DNA of 43,609 bases from NCBI GenBank assembly GCA_018066125.1, contig JAGHSA010000035.1, forward strand, positions 1-43,609, written 5' to 3'. The DNA comes from Candidatus Cryptobacteroides onthequi. GTDB lineage: Bacteria; Bacteroidota; Bacteroidia; Bacteroidales; UBA932. Positions 27,191 through 35,039 of this stretch are shown here, in pieces; the first letter of the stretch is position 1, and the number at the start of each line of letters is the position of its first letter. Under the pieces are notes generated by a model. It was not told the origin of the DNA and did no database searches. It saw nothing but the letters and a program-made list of their open reading frames with translations. The position numbers and the translations under genes are program-made.

Positions 27191-27213
27191 CATTTCCTAA
27201 AAACATACAACAG

Positions 27214-28149
27214 ATGAAACCAACACTTCTCGTTCTCGCTGCCGGAATGGGCAGCCGTTATGGCGGTCTCAAACAGATGGACGGTCTCGGACCTAACGGT
27301 GAGACCATCATTGACTATTCTATCTACGACGCAGTCAACGCCGGATTCGGCAAGGTTGTATATATTGTCCGCGAATACTTCCGCGAGCAGTTCGAACAGG
27401 TCGTAAAAGAGAAATACAGCGGCGTGAAATGCATCGACGGCGAGCCTCTCGAGTTCCAGTTCGTAGTCCAGGAGCTCAACAAGATCCCTGCGCGCTTCAA
27501 CCTCAACCCAGAAAGGCAGAAGCCTTGGGGAACAGCTCACGCTGTCCTCATGGCAAAGGATGTGATCAAGGAGCCTTTCGCTGTCATCAACGGTGACGAC
27601 TACTATGGAAAGGAATCCTTCAGTATCCTCGGAGACTGGCTCCGCGCCCATGAAGGATCAAAGGGAGTCTACAGCATCGTGGGATTCGAGCTCGAGAACA
27701 CACTTTCCGAGTCAGGCGGCGTATCCAGAGGCATCTGCGAGTATGACGCCGAGCAGCATCTCACAGACGTGGCCGAGCACCTCAACATCATGAAGGAGGC
27801 AGACGGTGTGGTAAGAGGCGACAACTCCATCAGCGGAGAGAGAGTCGAGCTCAAGGGCAAGGACCTCTGCTCTATGAACATGTGGGGGTTCACTCCTGAT
27901 TACTTCGAGTACAGCGAGGATCTCTTCAATGACTTCCTCGAGGAGAACATGGATCAGCTCAAGAAGGAATTCTACATCCCGTTCGCAGTAGACCGCATGG
28001 TCAAGGCCGGACAGGCCAAGTGCGATGTGCTCTCCACCCCTTCACACTGGTTCGGTGTGACATTCAAGGAGGACCGTCCAGGCGTTGTAGCCAAGTTCCA
28101 GGAACTTGTTGACAAGGGAGTATATCCATCACCTCTCTACAAGAAATAA
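27214..28149 (+). CDS. Nucleotidyltransferase (sugar-phosphate NTP transferase type)
   Basis: 311 residues from the ATG at 27214; the earlier in-frame codon at 27145 lies upstream of the promoter. The GT-A-type fold shows LLVLAAGMGSRYGGLKQMDG at the N terminus (nucleotide and metal loop), KPWGTAHAVLMAKD near 110, and VINGDDYYG near 130, the metal-binding acidic site. Such enzymes make NDP-sugars from sugar-1-phosphates; the sugar is unknown. It is the first of six closely spaced genes that include a sugar kinase and a second, MurU-like transferase, so a role with amino-sugar phosphates is likely but unproven. A 2-bp gap separates it from the CPBP gene. Confidence 0.85.
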   Translation: MKPTLLVLAAGMGSRYGGLKQMDGLGPNGETIIDYSIYDAVNAGFGKVVYIVREYFREQFEQVVKEKYSGVKCIDGEPLEFQFVVQELNKIPARFNLNPERQKPWGTAHAVLMAKDVIKEPFAVINGDDYYGKESFSILGDWLRAHEGSKGVYSIVGFELENTLSESGGVSRGICEYDAEQHLTDVAEHLNIMKEADGVVRGDNSISGERVELKGKDLCSMNMWGFTPDYFEYSEDLFNDFLEENMDQLKKEFYIPFAVDRMVKAGQAKCDVLSTPSHWFGVTFKEDRPGVVAKFQELVDKGVYPSPLYKK

Positions 28150-28151
28150 AT

Positions 28152-29066
28152 ATGGGTAAAGTCAAAAGAACAGTCAGGAACTACGACTTGTTCTCCGGCT
28201 TCCAGTACTATACTCCGGGCGTCAGCGGCATGCTGGCGCTCTTGTTGTGGCTGTTGGCAGGAGCCTGTATAGGATCTCTCATCACGATGCTGTTCGGCGT
28301 CGGACTCGGAGCTGACGCCGCCATGGAATACGGCACCTTGATATCCTACCCGGTAATGTTCATTCCTGCGATGATGTATGCGAGCCTCAAGAGCAAGTCC
28401 AACGCCCTCTGGGACAAGGGATACGCTCTCGACAGCAGTCATTTCGGCAGGGCCGGGGCCCTGGCCTGCGCCCTCATGGCTGCCGCAGCGGTATTCGTTT
28501 CGGGATTCATGAGCGACCTGGTCAACTCGCTCCTTCCTCCTATGCCGGAATGGCTTGAGGACGCCCTTTCGTCCATGACCGAAGGACGCCTCTGGGTAAA
28601 CCTCCTGTGCGTATCGGTGTTCGCTCCCCTCTTTGAGGAGTGGCTCTGCAGGGGCATGATCCTCCGCGGTCTGCTCAATGCCAGAAAGAGCACCGGGGAA
28701 AGAACTGTCTCACCTGCCTGGGCCATAGTCATCTCTGCCCTCTTCTTCGCTCTCATCCATGCCAATCCATGGCAGGCCGTGCCGGCATTCATCATAGGAT
28801 GCCTTTTCGGATACATCTATTTCAAGACAGGATCACTCAAGCTCACCATGCTGATGCACTGCGTCAACAACACCGTCGCCGTCATCTGCAGCAGGTTGGA
28901 ATGCTTCGAGGGCAAGGATTACTGGTCTGATGTACTCGGACCGAAGCTTTACGGAGTACTTTTCGCGGCAGCCGCAGTCATTCTTTTCCTGATCCTCCGA
29001 GAATTCAGCCGAATACCGCTCCAGTCTCCGTCAGGCAACTGTGACGAAACAGGGTCAGAAGAATAA
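28152..29066 (+). CDS. CPBP-family intramembrane metalloprotease
   Basis: 304 residues with about seven membrane segments. The CPBP/Abi motifs are present: EEWLCRG (Glu162, Glu163, Arg167), FALIHANPWQ with its His near 200, and MLMHCVNNT with His near 235, matching the four conserved motifs of CAAX-protease-like proteins. Prokaryotic members are thought to cleave membrane peptides; the substrate here is unknown. The start is 2 bp after the nucleotidyltransferase stop, and its TAA shares a base with the ATG of the kinase gene, so translation is probably coupled. The hydrophilic C-terminal tail has no evident motif. Confidence 0.85.
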   Translation: MGKVKRTVRNYDLFSGFQYYTPGVSGMLALLLWLLAGACIGSLITMLFGVGLGADAAMEYGTLISYPVMFIPAMMYASLKSKSNALWDKGYALDSSHFGRAGALACALMAAAAVFVSGFMSDLVNSLLPPMPEWLEDALSSMTEGRLWVNLLCVSVFAPLFEEWLCRGMILRGLLNARKSTGERTVSPAWAIVISALFFALIHANPWQAVPAFIIGCLFGYIYFKTGSLKLTMLMHCVNNTVAVICSRLECFEGKDYWSDVLGPKLYGVLFAAAAVILFLILREFSRIPLQSPSGNCDETGSEE

Positions 29067-30478
29067 TGGACAAACTCCTCAGACTCTTTGCCGCATACAC
29101 CGGTCACGATGCACAGACAGTCGATTCCATCAAATCTTCCGGAAGCCACAGGCACTATTACAGACTGTCTGCGGACGGATCGTCCCTGATAGGAGTGGTG
29201 GGTACGGATACCGACGAAGACAAGGCCTTCATCGTGGAGTCCCGCCTGTTCAGAGCCAGCGGCATCAACGTGCCGGAGGTTCTCGCTGTCAGTGAAGATG
29301 GGCTGGCATACCTCCAGGAGGATCTCGGAGACGACCTTCTGTTTGACAGAGTCGCCCCGGGCCGCAACTCCGGACACTACTCCCAGGAAGAGTGCGAACT
29401 CCTGTGCAAGGCCATGGCCGGTCTGCCGAAAATCCAGTATGAAGGGGTCAGAGGCCTGGATCTGAACATATGCTATCCTGACCGCGAGTTCAACGGCAGG
29501 ATGGTTGACTTCGATCTCAGCTATTTCAAATACTGCTACCTCAAGGTCTCATCCGTCGAATTCAACGAGCTCCGTCTCCAGGATGATTTCGACAGGCTCA
29601 AGGCCGACCTCCTCAGGGAGAAAAGCGAGACTTTCATGTACAGGGACTTCCAGGCCCGCAACGTGATGATCAAAGACGGTGAGATGTGGTACATCGACTT
29701 CCAGGGCGGAAGGAAGGGGCCCATCTACTATGACGTGGCCTCATTTGTATGGCAGGCCAAATCGCGCTTCCCTCAGGAACTCAAGGACAGGATGATCGAT
29801 GCCTACCTCGCGGCCCTGAAACCGTACAATGACATCTGCCGTGGGGAATTCATGCGCCGGCTCCGCATCTTCGTGCTCTTCCGCACCCTCCAGGTACTGG
29901 GTGCCTACGGGTTCCGCGGCAGGATAGAGAAACGTCCGCACTTCCTCAGCAGCATACCATACGCCCTGGAGAATGTCAGGGAACTGGTCGCAGAGCCTTT
30001 CGAGGAGTACCCATATCTCACTGAAGTGCTCAGGAAGATATCCGGCACAGAGGACAAAGTCCGTCTGCACAGCGACACTCTCAGAGTGGACGTGATGAGC
30101 TTCTCCTACCGCAAGGGACTGCCGCATGACGCATCGGGCAACGGCGGCGGCTACATATTCGACTGCCGGGGCATGCACAACCCCGGACGATATGAGGAAT
30201 ACAAGTCCCTCACCGGCATGGACAGGGAAGTGATACGGTTCCTGGAGTCCAGAGGAGAAGTGTCCGCATTCCTGGAAAACATCTACGGCATCGTGGACCC
30301 GCATGTCGAGAGGTACATCCAGCGCGGCTTTGACCATCTCCAGATATGCTTCGGATGCACAGGAGGCCAGCACCGCTCGGTCTACTGCGCTGAGGCGATG
30401 GCAAGACATCTCCATGAGAAATACGATATCAAGGTGGTCCTCACCCACAGGGAAAGGGAGATAGAAAAGGAATTCTGA
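29066..30478 (+). CDS. AmgK-like sugar kinase fused to a RapZ C-terminal domain
   Basis: 470 residues in two parts. Residues 1-320 are an aminoglycoside-phosphotransferase-type kinase like AmgK: SGSHRHYYRL near 25-34, YLQEDLGDD near 82-90, catalytic YRDFQARN (Asp194, Asn199) and the metal-binding IDFQGG (Asp211). Residues about 335-470 match the RapZ C-terminal domain: SFSYRKGLPHDA, FDCRGMHNP, TGMD, GCTGGQHRSV (430-439) and a final HRE. In E. coli that domain binds glucosamine-6-phosphate; the usual RapZ P-loop half is absent here. AmgK phosphorylates the anomeric position of MurNAc or GlcNAc for MurU. The one-base overlap with the MurU-like gene supports this pathway. The sensing role of the fused domain is inference. 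Confidence 0.85.
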   Translation: MDKLLRLFAAYTGHDAQTVDSIKSSGSHRHYYRLSADGSSLIGVVGTDTDEDKAFIVESRLFRASGINVPEVLAVSEDGLAYLQEDLGDDLLFDRVAPGRNSGHYSQEECELLCKAMAGLPKIQYEGVRGLDLNICYPDREFNGRMVDFDLSYFKYCYLKVSSVEFNELRLQDDFDRLKADLLREKSETFMYRDFQARNVMIKDGEMWYIDFQGGRKGPIYYDVASFVWQAKSRFPQELKDRMIDAYLAALKPYNDICRGEFMRRLRIFVLFRTLQVLGAYGFRGRIEKRPHFLSSIPYALENVRELVAEPFEEYPYLTEVLRKISGTEDKVRLHSDTLRVDVMSFSYRKGLPHDASGNGGGYIFDCRGMHNPGRYEEYKSLTGMDREVIRFLESRGEVSAFLENIYGIVDPHVERYIQRGFDHLQICFGCTGGQHRSVYCAEAMARHLHEKYDIKVVLTHREREIEKEF

Positions 30479-31212
30479 TGAAAGCGATGATATTTGCAGC
30501 AGGGCTCGGTACCAGACTGAAGCCCATGACCGACACCATGCCCAAGGCTCTGGTCCCGGTCGCAGGCAGGCCGCTGCTGTATCACGTCGCGCACAAGATA
30601 ATCGATGCCGGATTCGGGGAGCTTGTCATCAACACCCACCATTTCGCCGGAATGATCGAGGAATACGTCCATGACCAGAATGGATTCGGTGCCGATGTGG
30701 TCATATCGCACGAGCCGGTCCAGCCGCTTGAGACCGGCGGCGGCATCCTGAACGCAAGACCCCTGCTGGAAGGCTGCGGCAGATTTCTGGTACACAATGT
30801 GGACATCATTTCCGACCTGGACCTCAGGTGGTTCATGGATCAGGCCAGGCCTGATGCCGTCTCGACTCTCCTTGTCAGCCAGAGGGAAAGCAGCCGCTAT
30901 CTGCTGTTCGATGACGGCATGCGTCTGGTGGGGTGGAAAAATGTCAAGACGGGAGAAGTAAAGTCACCATACCCCGGCCTGGACGCGGACAGATGCCGAC
31001 GCATGGCTTTTGCCGGCATCCATTGCATGTCCGACACGATTTTTGCAAAAATGGAAGAGCTGGGGATGCCTGAGCGCTTCTCCATCATAGATTTCTACCT
31101 CGCGGCAGCTGACACCTGCCCCATATACGGAGTGGTGGCACCAAGCCTCCGCATCCTGGATGTCGGCAAGGCCGGTGCCATTGCAGAAGCGGAGAAATTG
31201 TTATCTTTGTAG
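30478..31212 (+). CDS. murU: MurU-like sugar-1-phosphate uridylyltransferase
   Basis: 244 residues. The N terminus has the full nucleotidyltransferase signature AAGLGTRLKPMT, then MPKALVPVAGRPLL; NTHHFAG near 57, ETGGGILNA near 83 and VHNVDII near 103 follow. This is the pattern and length of MurNAc-1-phosphate uridylyltransferase (MurU), which forms UDP-MurNAc and bypasses de novo peptidoglycan precursor synthesis. The ATG shares one base with the stop of the AmgK-RapZ fusion, so kinase and transferase are made together. A related sugar-1-phosphate cannot be excluded. The porin gene starts 18 bp downstream. Confidence 0.82.
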   Translation: MKAMIFAAGLGTRLKPMTDTMPKALVPVAGRPLLYHVAHKIIDAGFGELVINTHHFAGMIEEYVHDQNGFGADVVISHEPVQPLETGGGILNARPLLEGCGRFLVHNVDIISDLDLRWFMDQARPDAVSTLLVSQRESSRYLLFDDGMRLVGWKNVKTGEVKSPYPGLDADRCRRMAFAGIHCMSDTIFAKMEELGMPERFSIIDFYLAAADTCPIYGVVAPSLRILDVGKAGAIAEAEKLLSL

Positions 31213-33977: not shown

Positions 33978-35039
33978 ATGAAAAGAAAGGCATTGCTGCT
34001 CAACCTGCTTGCAATTGTCCTTGGACTGCTTCTCGCTGCAGGATACAGTTATCTTGAAAGCAGAAGACACATCGAGCAGGGCTGCTCTCTTCGCGAAAGG
34101 GAGTTGAGATGCGCCATGGAACTTGGAAGATACAGTGACTCGACCAAGAACCTCACGGCAGGATACAACTACGCCATCCTCAAGAAATTCGCTGCAGACA
34201 TGAACTCCGAGATAGAGATCAGTCTGTCGCTCGAAGGGGAAAATTATCTGGACTCTCTGGCAGACGGAGCGGTGGACATAGTGGTGAGACCCATCTCAGA
34301 CACAACCACCAGGACAGACATACTTCCATCAGACCACGTGGGAGACCTGGCCAGATGGGTTGTGGACGGGAACAACGAGATAGCTCTCAGAGAGATCAAT
34401 GAGTGGCTTGAGGAATACCACGAATCAGATGAGTTCAAACCCGTGCATGATCTGTACGTAAAAGCCATCAAGAATCCTTTCCTGATGGCAGAGAACGGAG
34501 GGAAGGTCAACCAGCTCAGTCCATACGACAGCCTCTTCAGAGTGTATTCGGCGAAACTCGGATGGCAGTGGAAAGAGTTCGCTGCCCTGGTCTATCAGGA
34601 ATCCCGTTTCCACATCGAGGCACTGTCATGGAGAGGTGCCACCGGACTCCTGCAGATGATGCCCCACACGGCAAGCCGCTTTGACAGGGACAATCTCCTG
34701 GATCCGGAAGAGAATATCAGGGCCGGTGTGCAGTATCTTCTGAGACTCAGAGACATATTCTCAAAAAGAGTTGCCGGCGACCAGCTCGACCTATTCACCA
34801 TGGCGGCCTACAATGCAGGCGAAGGACGCATCATAGACTGTATCAATTACGCCCAGTACAAGAATGTCTACGACAGCACCTGGGCGAGCATCTGCTCCAT
34901 ACTCCCCGACATGGCGGATGACGCGATCCTCGAGATCGACACGGTGAAAGTCGGAAAATTCTCCGGAAAGGAGACAATGTATTTCCTGGACAACATCCTG
35001 GCTCTCCAGGAAGCGTTCAACACCATCTGCCCGGAATAG
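33978..35039 (+). CDS. MltF-like membrane-bound lytic transglycosylase
   Basis: 353 residues. An N-terminal membrane anchor (about 6-24, LLLNLLAIVLGLLLAAG) precedes a region of about 140 residues resembling a truncated solute-binding domain (MNSEIEISLSLEGENY, GAVDIVVRP). The SLT domain then shows its catalytic Glu in ALVYQESRFHIEA (about 211), GATGLLQMMPHTASRF, and FTMAAYNAGEGRI. The domain order is that of MltF, which cleaves the MurNAc-GlcNAc bond of peptidoglycan in the periplasm with release of anhydro-muropeptides. Last gene of the operon that also encodes the AmgK/MurU-like recycling pair, which fits its role as a source of recyclable sugar. Stop is 3 bp from the convergent permease gene. 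Confidence 0.87.
   Translation: MKRKALLLNLLAIVLGLLLAAGYSYLESRRHIEQGCSLRERELRCAMELGRYSDSTKNLTAGYNYAILKKFAADMNSEIEISLSLEGENYLDSLADGAVDIVVRPISDTTTRTDILPSDHVGDLARWVVDGNNEIALREINEWLEEYHESDEFKPVHDLYVKAIKNPFLMAENGGKVNQLSPYDSLFRVYSAKLGWQWKEFAALVYQESRFHIEALSWRGATGLLQMMPHTASRFDRDNLLDPEENIRAGVQYLLRLRDIFSKRVAGDQLDLFTMAAYNAGEGRIIDCINYAQYKNVYDSTWASICSILPDMADDAILEIDTVKVGKFSGKETMYFLDNILALQEAFNTICPE

What the first reader, a model, noticed from the sequence alone, without database searches (positions are those of the whole stretch)
29066..31212. AmgK-like kinase fused to a RapZ C-terminal domain, coupled to a MurU-like transferase
Seen: one frame of 470 residues joins an aminoglycoside-phosphotransferase-type kinase (Asp194, Asn199, Asp211 in place) to a complete RapZ C-terminal domain (GCTGGQHRSV). 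A MurU-like gene starts on the stop codon. Established: AmgK and MurU recycle MurNAc to UDP-MurNAc, and in E. coli the RapZ C-terminal domain binds glucosamine-6-phosphate. Inference: the fused domain senses amino-sugar phosphate and controls the kinase, or binds an RNA as RapZ does. RapZ's own P-loop half is replaced by the sugar kinase. I do not know of a characterised example.
Basis: partly seen in the sequence, partly recalled or inferred. Interest (0 to 1): 0.75.

Follow-up and report, generated by a model that had tools for sequence, protein, structure and literature searches.

The report
Cell-wall sugar kinase fused to RapZ domain
In many Bacteroidota a kinase that probably salvages a cell-wall sugar is fused to, or sits beside, the C-terminal domain of the bacterial regulator RapZ, and gene content suggests that this domain may be the missing phosphatase of that salvage pathway rather than a sensor.

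Summary
One intact 470-residue frame (29066-30478) joins an AmgK-like (APH-fold) kinase to a RapZ C-terminal domain (PF22740), and a MurU-like gene starts on its stop codon. It is not an assembly error: 84 relatives carry the same fusion, and 73 of 83 loci have MurU next. Other Bacteroidota carry the halves as adjacent or unlinked genes; no RapZ_C match in 296 genomes lies in a frame of ordinary RapZ size. RefSeq calls a Parabacteroides distasonis copy 'RNase adapter RapZ'.

The motif CTGGxHRS fits the cysteine-phosphatase signature CxxGxxR(S/T), invariant in 85 of 85 fusions, while most RapZ RNA contacts and the basic tail are lost. Gene content fits anabolic MurNAc salvage: outside one family, 20 of 37 kinase+ but 0 of 195 kinase- genomes lack MurQ. 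In near-complete genomes of one class, 30 of 30 with AnmK but no MurQ have kinase and RapZ domain, against 3 of 59 with both enzymes. MupP is over cut-off in 0 of 61 genomes. Proposal: MurNAc-6P to MurNAc (RapZ domain), MurNAc-1P (kinase), UDP-MurNAc (MurU). No activity was tested, no structure model obtained; RapZ_C tracks the kinase more than AnmK, and the window's genome has MurQ but no detected AnmK.

The parts
29066..30478 (+). fused gene: AmgK-like kinase + RapZ C-terminal domain, 470 aa
29066..30019 (+). kinase part (about residues 1-318); APH fold, nearest solved chain 3csv
29645..29698 (+). catalytic stretch D194 ... N199 ... D211 (all three invariant in 85 of 85)
30083..30454 (+). 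RapZ C-terminal domain PF22740 (residues 340-463)
30185..30187 (+). Gly374, at the place of E. coli RapZ His190 (Gly in 85 of 85)
30356..30379 (+). C431-T-G-G-Q-H-R437-S438: CxxGxxR(S/T) loop, candidate active site
   Evidence: loop likeness for E. coli RapZ stated in PMC7199280 (passage)
30478..31212 (+). MurU-like nucleotidyltransferase, starts on the stop codon of the fused gene
28152..29066 (+). CAAX (Rce1-like) intramembrane protease gene, last base of its stop codon shared with the start of the fused gene; same transcript likely (inference), role unclear

Best explanation
The protein is a two-step enzyme of anabolic MurNAc salvage. The RapZ C-terminal domain is a cysteine-dependent phosphatase that takes the phosphate off MurNAc-6-phosphate (nucleophile Cys431, phosphate held by the 431-438 loop and Arg437). 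The APH-type kinase half then phosphorylates the freed MurNAc at C1, and the MurU-like enzyme makes UDP-MurNAc. Fusion lets one protein move the phosphate from position 6 to position 1. The domain would be the Bacteroidota counterpart, from an unrelated protein family, of the HAD phosphatase MupP of Pseudomonas. Shown here: architecture, conservation, gene order and co-occurrence. Inferred: both enzyme activities, the substrate, and the use of Cys431.
For: (1) Motif: CTGGxHRS = CxxGxxR(S/T); Cys431, Gly434, Arg437 and Ser438 invariant in 85 of 85 fusions, and the motif is in 17 of 17 stand-alone copies checked. Literature on E. [quoted passage not shown] (2) Pathway: MurQ is missing in 83 of 100 kinase+ and 1 of 196 kinase- genomes; outside family f18 in 20 of 37 and 0 of 195. 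(3) Dead-end test: AnmK makes MurNAc-6P, which without MurQ needs a phosphatase. AnmK+ MurQ- genomes carry RapZ_C in 12 of 12 (phylum sample) and, in a second sample (one class, at least 95% complete), in 30 of 30, against 3 of 59 AnmK+ MurQ+; in genomes new to that sample 27 of 27 against 2 of 24. The state is spread over nine families. (4) MupP model NF009696: 0 of 61 genomes over its cut-off, 39 of them AnmK+ MurQ-; best score 101 of 359 bits. (5) Arrangement: fused; or kinase / RapZ_C / MurU as three neighbouring genes; or RapZ_C alone and far from the kinase, which suits a separate enzyme better than an attached regulatory domain.
Against: No activity measured and no structure model: structure prediction accepted no job. 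RapZ_C follows the kinase more than it follows AnmK: kinase+ genomes carry it in 25 of 25 with AnmK and 11 of 75 without, but 63 of the 64 lacking it are one family, f18; outside f18 it is in 11 of 12 kinase+ genomes without AnmK. So the dead-end figures mostly restate 'kinase plus RapZ_C instead of MurQ'. Over all genomes of the phylum sample AnmK and RapZ_C are not associated (25 of 207 against 11 of 89, P=1). RapZ_C, fused or adjacent, occurs in 7 genomes with neither AnmK nor MurQ, and fused copies in 17 with MurQ (13 with AnmK, 4 without). The window's own genome (85% complete) has a MurQ match (7.8e-92), no AnmK match and no BadF-type kinase over cut-off, so its source of MurNAc-6P is unknown. 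8 of 43 AnmK+ MurQ- genomes of the class sample lack RapZ_C, all 68-94% complete, two with the kinase. Kinase and MurU-like protein score far under the AmgK and MurU equivalog cut-offs (44 of 550; 125 of 250 bits). E. coli murQ mutants accumulate MurNAc-6P (PMC5371407 passage), so canonical RapZ does not do this job there. All 61 genomes have weaker HAD-family matches, and one of those proteins could be the phosphatase; none of the 14 control genomes is over the MupP cut-off either, so it may be narrow. The counts are not corrected for shared descent.
Confidence: 0.45

Rival explanations
1. The C-terminal domain is a ligand sensor: it binds an amino-sugar 6-phosphate (GlcN6P or MurNAc-6P) and turns the kinase on or off.
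For: E. coli RapZ-CTD binds GlcN6P (KD 10 nM by SPR; PMC7073468 passage); four of five pocket residues are kept. RapZ_C is found only in genomes with the kinase (36 of 36, 43 of 43) and, outside f18, in nearly all of them, with or without AnmK, as expected of a regulator of the kinase.
Against: Pocket residue His190 is Gly in 85 of 85. The domain is more conserved than the kinase it would regulate (59% against 42% mean identity to the window). Stand-alone copies far from the kinase exist. A sensor leaves MurNAc-6P a dead end in AnmK+ MurQ- genomes unless another phosphatase is there.
Confidence: 0.33
2. The kinase and transferase act on another sugar (for example a GlcNAc or heptose-type pathway), and RapZ_C acts there.
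For: AmgK and MurU equivalog cut-offs are not met. The transferase also matches HddC and mannose-1-phosphate guanylyltransferase models. A conserved MFS transporter of unknown substrate follows 7 of 9 unlinked stand-alone RapZ_C genes looked at; E. coli AmpG gives no significant match to it.
Against: AmgK models are the best NCBIfam matches of the kinase part and MurU of the transferase. The exclusion with MurQ points at MurNAc; a like exclusion is reported for Beta- and Gammaproteobacteria (PMC5371407 passage).
Confidence: 0.15
3. The domain binds an RNA, as in RapZ, and ties expression control to the kinase.
For: It is a true RapZ_C homologue; K170 is mostly Lys or Arg, R184 is Arg and R196 mostly Lys.
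Against: H190, K194, R238, K251 and the basic tail are lost; the RapZ N-terminal domain is not matched; no Rfam family over its gathering score in the window.
Confidence: 0.04
4. Inactive leftover domain that only holds the kinase in a dimer.
For: The RapZ-CTD forms a dimer on its own (PMC5737377, PMC9841335 passages).
Against: 22 residues of the domain are invariant in 85 fusions, many of them in the loop 430-438 and around 372-374; the domain also exists as a free gene.
Confidence: 0.03

Closest known systems
Anabolic MurNAc recycling of Pseudomonas: AnmK - MupP - AmgK - MurU (PMC5371407)
   Same: AmgK-like kinase coupled to MurU-like transferase; tends to exclude MurQ; AnmK in many of the genomes
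   Different: MupP is a HAD phosphatase and is not over its model's cut-off here (0 of 61 genomes); a RapZ_C domain, fused or separate, takes its place in the profile
RapZ of E. coli (RNase adapter; PDB 5o5o, 5o5s)
   Same: C-terminal domain PF22740 with C247/T248/G249/H252/R253 kept
   Different: no match to the N-terminal half; His190 to Gly; basic tail lost; extra Gly-rich stretch (SGNGGG before Y/F363); fused to a sugar kinase
Cysteine-dependent CX5R phosphatases
   Same: signature CxxGxxR(S/T) (signature recalled); likeness of the RapZ loop stated in PMC7199280 (passage)
Aminoglycoside-phosphotransferase-fold protein 3csv
   Same: nearest solved relative of the kinase half (3.1e-27 with the family profile), shared I-D-F-Q and G-x-x-x-Y-D motifs
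   Different: no RapZ_C domain matched; its function is not given in the record seen

Membership tests
AmgK (N-acetylmuramate/N-acetylglucosamine anomeric kinase) | score over the NCBIfam equivalog cut-off | tested here: not met
   44 bits against 550 (NF045759), 32.1 against 500 (NF045698)
AmgK (N-acetylmuramate/N-acetylglucosamine anomeric kinase) | kinase catalytic residues D194, N199, D211 | tested here: met
   invariant in 85 of 85
AmgK (N-acetylmuramate/N-acetylglucosamine anomeric kinase) | makes MurNAc alpha-1-phosphate | not testable with these tools
   needs an assay
MurU | score over the NCBIfam equivalog cut-off | tested here: not met
   125.1 bits against 250 (NF045761)
MurU | coupled to an AmgK-like kinase gene | tested here: met
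   73 of 83 loci, median gap 2 bp
RapZ (whole protein) | P-loop N-terminal domain / RapZ equivalog score | tested here: not met
   105.5 bits against 244, only profile positions 156-277 of 278 matched
RapZ C-terminal domain (PF22740) | Pfam gathering score | tested here: met
   121.3 bits against 27
RapZ C-terminal domain (PF22740) | pocket residues H190, T248, G249, H252, R253 | tested here: not met
   four of five kept, H190 is Gly374
RapZ as RNA binder | basic tail and contact residues | tested here: not met
   0 of 85 fusions have 8 Lys/Arg in the last 19 residues; K194, R238, K251 replaced in the window protein
CX5R cysteine phosphatases | signature CxxGxxR(S/T) | tested here: met
   85 of 85 fusions, 17 of 17 stand-alone copies
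CX5R cysteine phosphatases | phosphatase fold, thiol-dependent hydrolysis | not tested
   no structure job accepted; needs an assay
MupP role (MurNAc-6P phosphatase) | present where kinase and AnmK are present and MurQ absent | tested here: met
   12 of 12, and 30 of 30 at 95% completeness or more; but it follows the kinase also without AnmK (11 of 12 outside f18), so the test is not specific
MupP (HAD family) | sequence family NF009696 | tested here: not met
   0 of 61 genomes over cut-off; the fused domain is PF22740, not HAD

The most novel reading that the evidence does not exclude
The RapZ C-terminal domain is by origin an amino-sugar 6-phosphate phosphatase of the cysteine type. In Bacteroidota it dephosphorylates MurNAc-6P and, fused to an AmgK-like kinase, forms a one-protein 'pseudo-mutase' (6-phosphate to 1-phosphate) that replaces MupP. 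E. coli RapZ would be a relative in which this enzyme pocket became a GlcN6P sensor and RNA-binding site.
Probability: 0.35. Interest if true: 0.85.

Novelty: new variant of a known kind. Interest (0 to 1): 0.67.

Why it matters
If true, it names the missing phosphatase of peptidoglycan salvage in a major bacterial phylum, gives RapZ's conserved cysteine a chemical meaning, and suggests how a metabolic enzyme domain became an RNA-binding regulator. It would also correct a database name: the Parabacteroides distasonis and Bacteroides finegoldii copies are annotated 'RNase adapter RapZ'. The anabolic salvage route bypasses the step blocked by fosfomycin in Pseudomonas (PMC5371407, abstract passage), so the enzymes of this route are of general interest.

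Tried and rejected
Assembly error or frameshift: rejected, 84 intact fused relatives. AnmK as a simple partner of RapZ_C: rejected over all genomes (P=1); the link inside kinase+ genomes rests on family f18. Canonical RapZ in Bacteroidota: none seen. In one search the 36 matches lie in 27 fused-size frames (477-524 aa) and 9 of 134-155 aa. In the class sample some frames have other sizes; six stretches (G347, G305, G332, G362, G359, G031) were read: RapZ_C starts at a Met of its own, and no frame there matches the E. coli RapZ N-terminal half at E 0.001. The other odd-size frames were not all read. AmpG identity of the MFS neighbour: no significant match. NCBIfam accession NF045760, a guess for MupP: it is YtpR, no use; the MupP model was found through E. 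coli Gph. BadF-type kinase in the own genome: nothing over cut-off. Structure prediction and fold search: never possible. A profile of the domain against PDB sequences found only RapZ at significant E-values. Rfam: no match in the window. Literature: the listings show no paper on this fusion or on a Bacteroidota MurNAc-6P phosphatase of this family; several listings were capped at 8-40 rows, and only open-licence papers are held. PMC7670621 (passages) names AmgK and MurU for Tannerella forsythia without a domain description in what I saw; PMC5790795 gave only reference-list hits.

Limits of the counts: genome handles were typed by hand from the tables into scripts 55, 83 and 95; genomes not listed as matching were taken as negative. 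'MurQ absent' means a best TIGR00274 match weaker than about 1e-40 (in one search such matches lie mostly in frames of about 610-670 aa, the size of GlmS; that they are GlmS is recalled, not tested). This gives 212 of 296 present, against 205 over the curated cut-off. The table covers 16 families with a kinase+ genome; f18 was left out there and counted.
Full report
WHAT IS THERE. The window holds a 470-residue gene at 29066-30478 (+). Pfam places an APH kinase at residues 58-251 and the RapZ C-terminal domain PF22740 at 340-463. NCBIfam sees only positions 156-277 of the 278-position RapZ model and a weak AmgK match. The gene starts on the stop codon of a CAAX-protease gene, and its own stop codon overlaps the start of a MurU-like gene, 30478-31212. 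It is the only RapZ_C match in the own genome, which is 85% complete.

IT IS REAL AND WIDESPREAD. A protein search hit 100 of 296 Bacteroidota genomes, and a pattern scan of one genome for each of 84,980 species brought 68 loci. Of the 98 loci L002-L099, 85 (the window included, 85 distinct sequences) give a fused protein over 440 residues with CTGGxHRS and no unresolved residue. MurU follows on the same strand in 73 of 83 with at least 650 bp downstream, median gap 2 bp; in one of the ten others (L043) it is on the opposite strand. Copies exist in named records: Parabacteroides distasonis, Bacteroides finegoldii, Phocaeicola massiliensis and Prevotella sp. oral taxon 299, all in the plasmid collection. 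The P. distasonis copy is annotated 'RNase adapter RapZ' and is followed at once by a 'nucleotidyltransferase family protein', 49% identical to the window's MurU-like protein.

FUSED, SPLIT, FREE. Of 36 RapZ_C matches in the phylum sample, 27 lie in fused-size frames and 9 in frames of 134-155 aa. In family f5 (six genomes) the kinase, a 135-139 aa RapZ_C gene and MurU are three neighbours. The same order is seen in G312, G319, G031, G305, G332, G347 and G362. In families f41 and f47 RapZ_C and kinase lie on different contigs or hundreds of kilobases apart. In the kinase tree the f5 split genes sit inside a fused clade (support 0.98), so this looks like a fission. Every genome with RapZ_C has the kinase: 36 of 36 and 43 of 43. 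The reverse does not hold: 64 kinase+ genomes of the first sample lack RapZ_C, 63 of them from family f18 with distant kinases (22-30% identity for the main match), the other is G009. Four f18 loci looked at also carry a coupled MurU-like gene.

RESIDUES. Compared with E. coli RapZ, C247, T248, G249, H252 and R253 are kept; in the window protein H190 becomes Gly374, K194 Glu, R238 Phe, K251 Gln, and the tail loses its charge: 8 Lys/Arg in the last 19 residues of RapZ, median 3 and maximum 7 in 85 fusions. Residues invariant in all 85 fall into the kinase active site (D194, N199, D211 among them) and, in the C-terminal domain, around N372-P-G374 and G430-C-T-G-G-x-H-R-S438, with others elsewhere. 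The C-terminal domain is more conserved than the kinase (59% against 42% mean identity to the window).

WHAT THE LITERATURE SAYS OF RAPZ. Passages only. The RapZ-CTD pocket takes sulphate or malonate (PMC5737377); the domain binds GlcN6P (PMC7073468); C247A and C247S abolish function, and crystals with GlcN6P show what is likely a transformed product (PMC9841335); the pocket resembles the loop of cysteine-dependent tyrosine phosphatases, and hydrolysis of GlcN6P was raised as a hypothesis (PMC7199280). So the phosphatase idea for RapZ is not mine; its use for the Bacteroidota fusion and for MurNAc-6P is, as far as the listings show.

THE GENE-CONTENT TEST. In Proteobacteria MupP was found by asking for a gene present with AmgK and absent with MurQ (PMC5371407 passage). 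I asked the same here. Phylum sample, 296 genomes: MurQ is missing in 83 of 100 kinase+ and 1 of 196 kinase- genomes. Family f18 gives 63 of these 83 and the one exception; outside f18 the figures are 20 of 37 and 0 of 195. Within family f17 kinase+ genomes lack MurQ 6 of 6 and kinase- 0 of 10. RapZ_C by class of genome: AnmK+ MurQ- 12 of 12; AnmK+ MurQ+ 13 of 195; AnmK- MurQ+ 4 of 17; AnmK- MurQ- 7 of 72. Second sample, the class of G271, 129 genomes: AnmK+ MurQ- 35 of 43; AnmK+ MurQ+ 3 of 69; AnmK- MurQ+ 0 of 11; AnmK- MurQ- 5 of 6. Restricted to at least 95% complete, n=105: 30 of 30, 3 of 59, 0 of 10 and 5 of 6. The samples overlap; in the 52 new near-complete genomes AnmK+ MurQ- gives 27 of 27 and AnmK+ MurQ+ 2 of 24. 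The AnmK+ MurQ- RapZ_C+ state occurs in nine families (f4, f5, f16, f34, f41, f47, f52, f57, f58). MupP itself is not over its model's cut-off in any of 61 genomes, 39 of them AnmK+ MurQ-. All 61 have weaker HAD-family matches, the best 101 bits against 359, and no control genome is over the cut-off, which may be narrow.

WHAT THE TEST DOES NOT SHOW. RapZ_C tracks the kinase: outside f18 it is in 25 of 25 kinase+ genomes with AnmK and in 11 of 12 without. So the figures show that kinase plus RapZ_C stand in for MurQ, but they do not show that RapZ_C answers to AnmK as such. A regulator of the kinase would give much the same picture. The counts are not corrected for descent.

READING. AnmK makes MurNAc-6P. 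Without MurQ it must be dephosphorylated before AmgK and MurU can use it. In the near-complete Bacteroidota genomes sampled, RapZ_C is there each time in that case, and its invariant loop has the cysteine-phosphatase signature. I therefore read the fused protein as phosphatase plus anomeric kinase. Cases that do not fit simply are copies in genomes without AnmK (f17, some of f35, G267, the window's own genome and G230) and in genomes with MurQ; there MurNAc-6P would have to come from another kinase, or the domain may work on another sugar phosphate or as a sensor. In the window's genome the domain would compete with MurQ.

STATUS. Fusion, conservation, coupling and profile are shown. Enzyme activity, substrate and role of Cys431 are inferred. 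By the curated cut-offs the kinase is not an AmgK equivalog and the transferase not a MurU equivalog, so I say 'AmgK-like' and 'MurU-like'. The system is a variant of a known pathway, not a new kind of system.

Noticed in passing
L137, L146, L147, L153, L155, L157, L158: A stand-alone RapZ_C gene is followed within -17 to +36 bp by a related MFS transporter gene (51-90% identity among them), substrate unknown, no significant match to E. coli AmpG; 7 of the 9 unlinked stand-alone loci looked at (not seen at L135 and L148).
   Followed up: partly
L165, L166, L167: 26 Streptomyces plasmid records match RapZ. Three looked at carry a stand-alone gene of 128-132 residues with CVGGRHRS or CSGGRHRA, annotated RNase adapter RapZ, mostly among hypothetical plasmid genes.
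   Followed up: partly
L145-L148 (G271, G303, G315, G364); L152 (G005): AnmK lies 8 to 16 kb from RapZ_C in four genomes of family f47, and about 11 kb from the fusion in G005.
   Followed up: partly
window 27208-28149 and 33978-35039: A second sugar-nucleotidyltransferase-like gene and an SLT lytic-transglycosylase gene flank the locus; the former, CAAX protease, fusion, MurU, porin and SLT gene keep this order in L032-L034.
   Followed up: partly
L163, L164: The fusion lies on circular records labelled plasmids of Parabacteroides distasonis (278 kb) and Bacteroides finegoldii (95 kb) that carry housekeeping genes such as glutamate dehydrogenase or aldolase; these may be mislabelled chromosome pieces.
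   Followed up: no
L141-L144: Family f18 genomes have an AmgK-like kinase with an overlapping longer MurU-like gene in the four loci read; the 64 f18 genomes sampled have no RapZ_C and no MurQ by my criterion, and none is listed with AnmK.
   Followed up: partly
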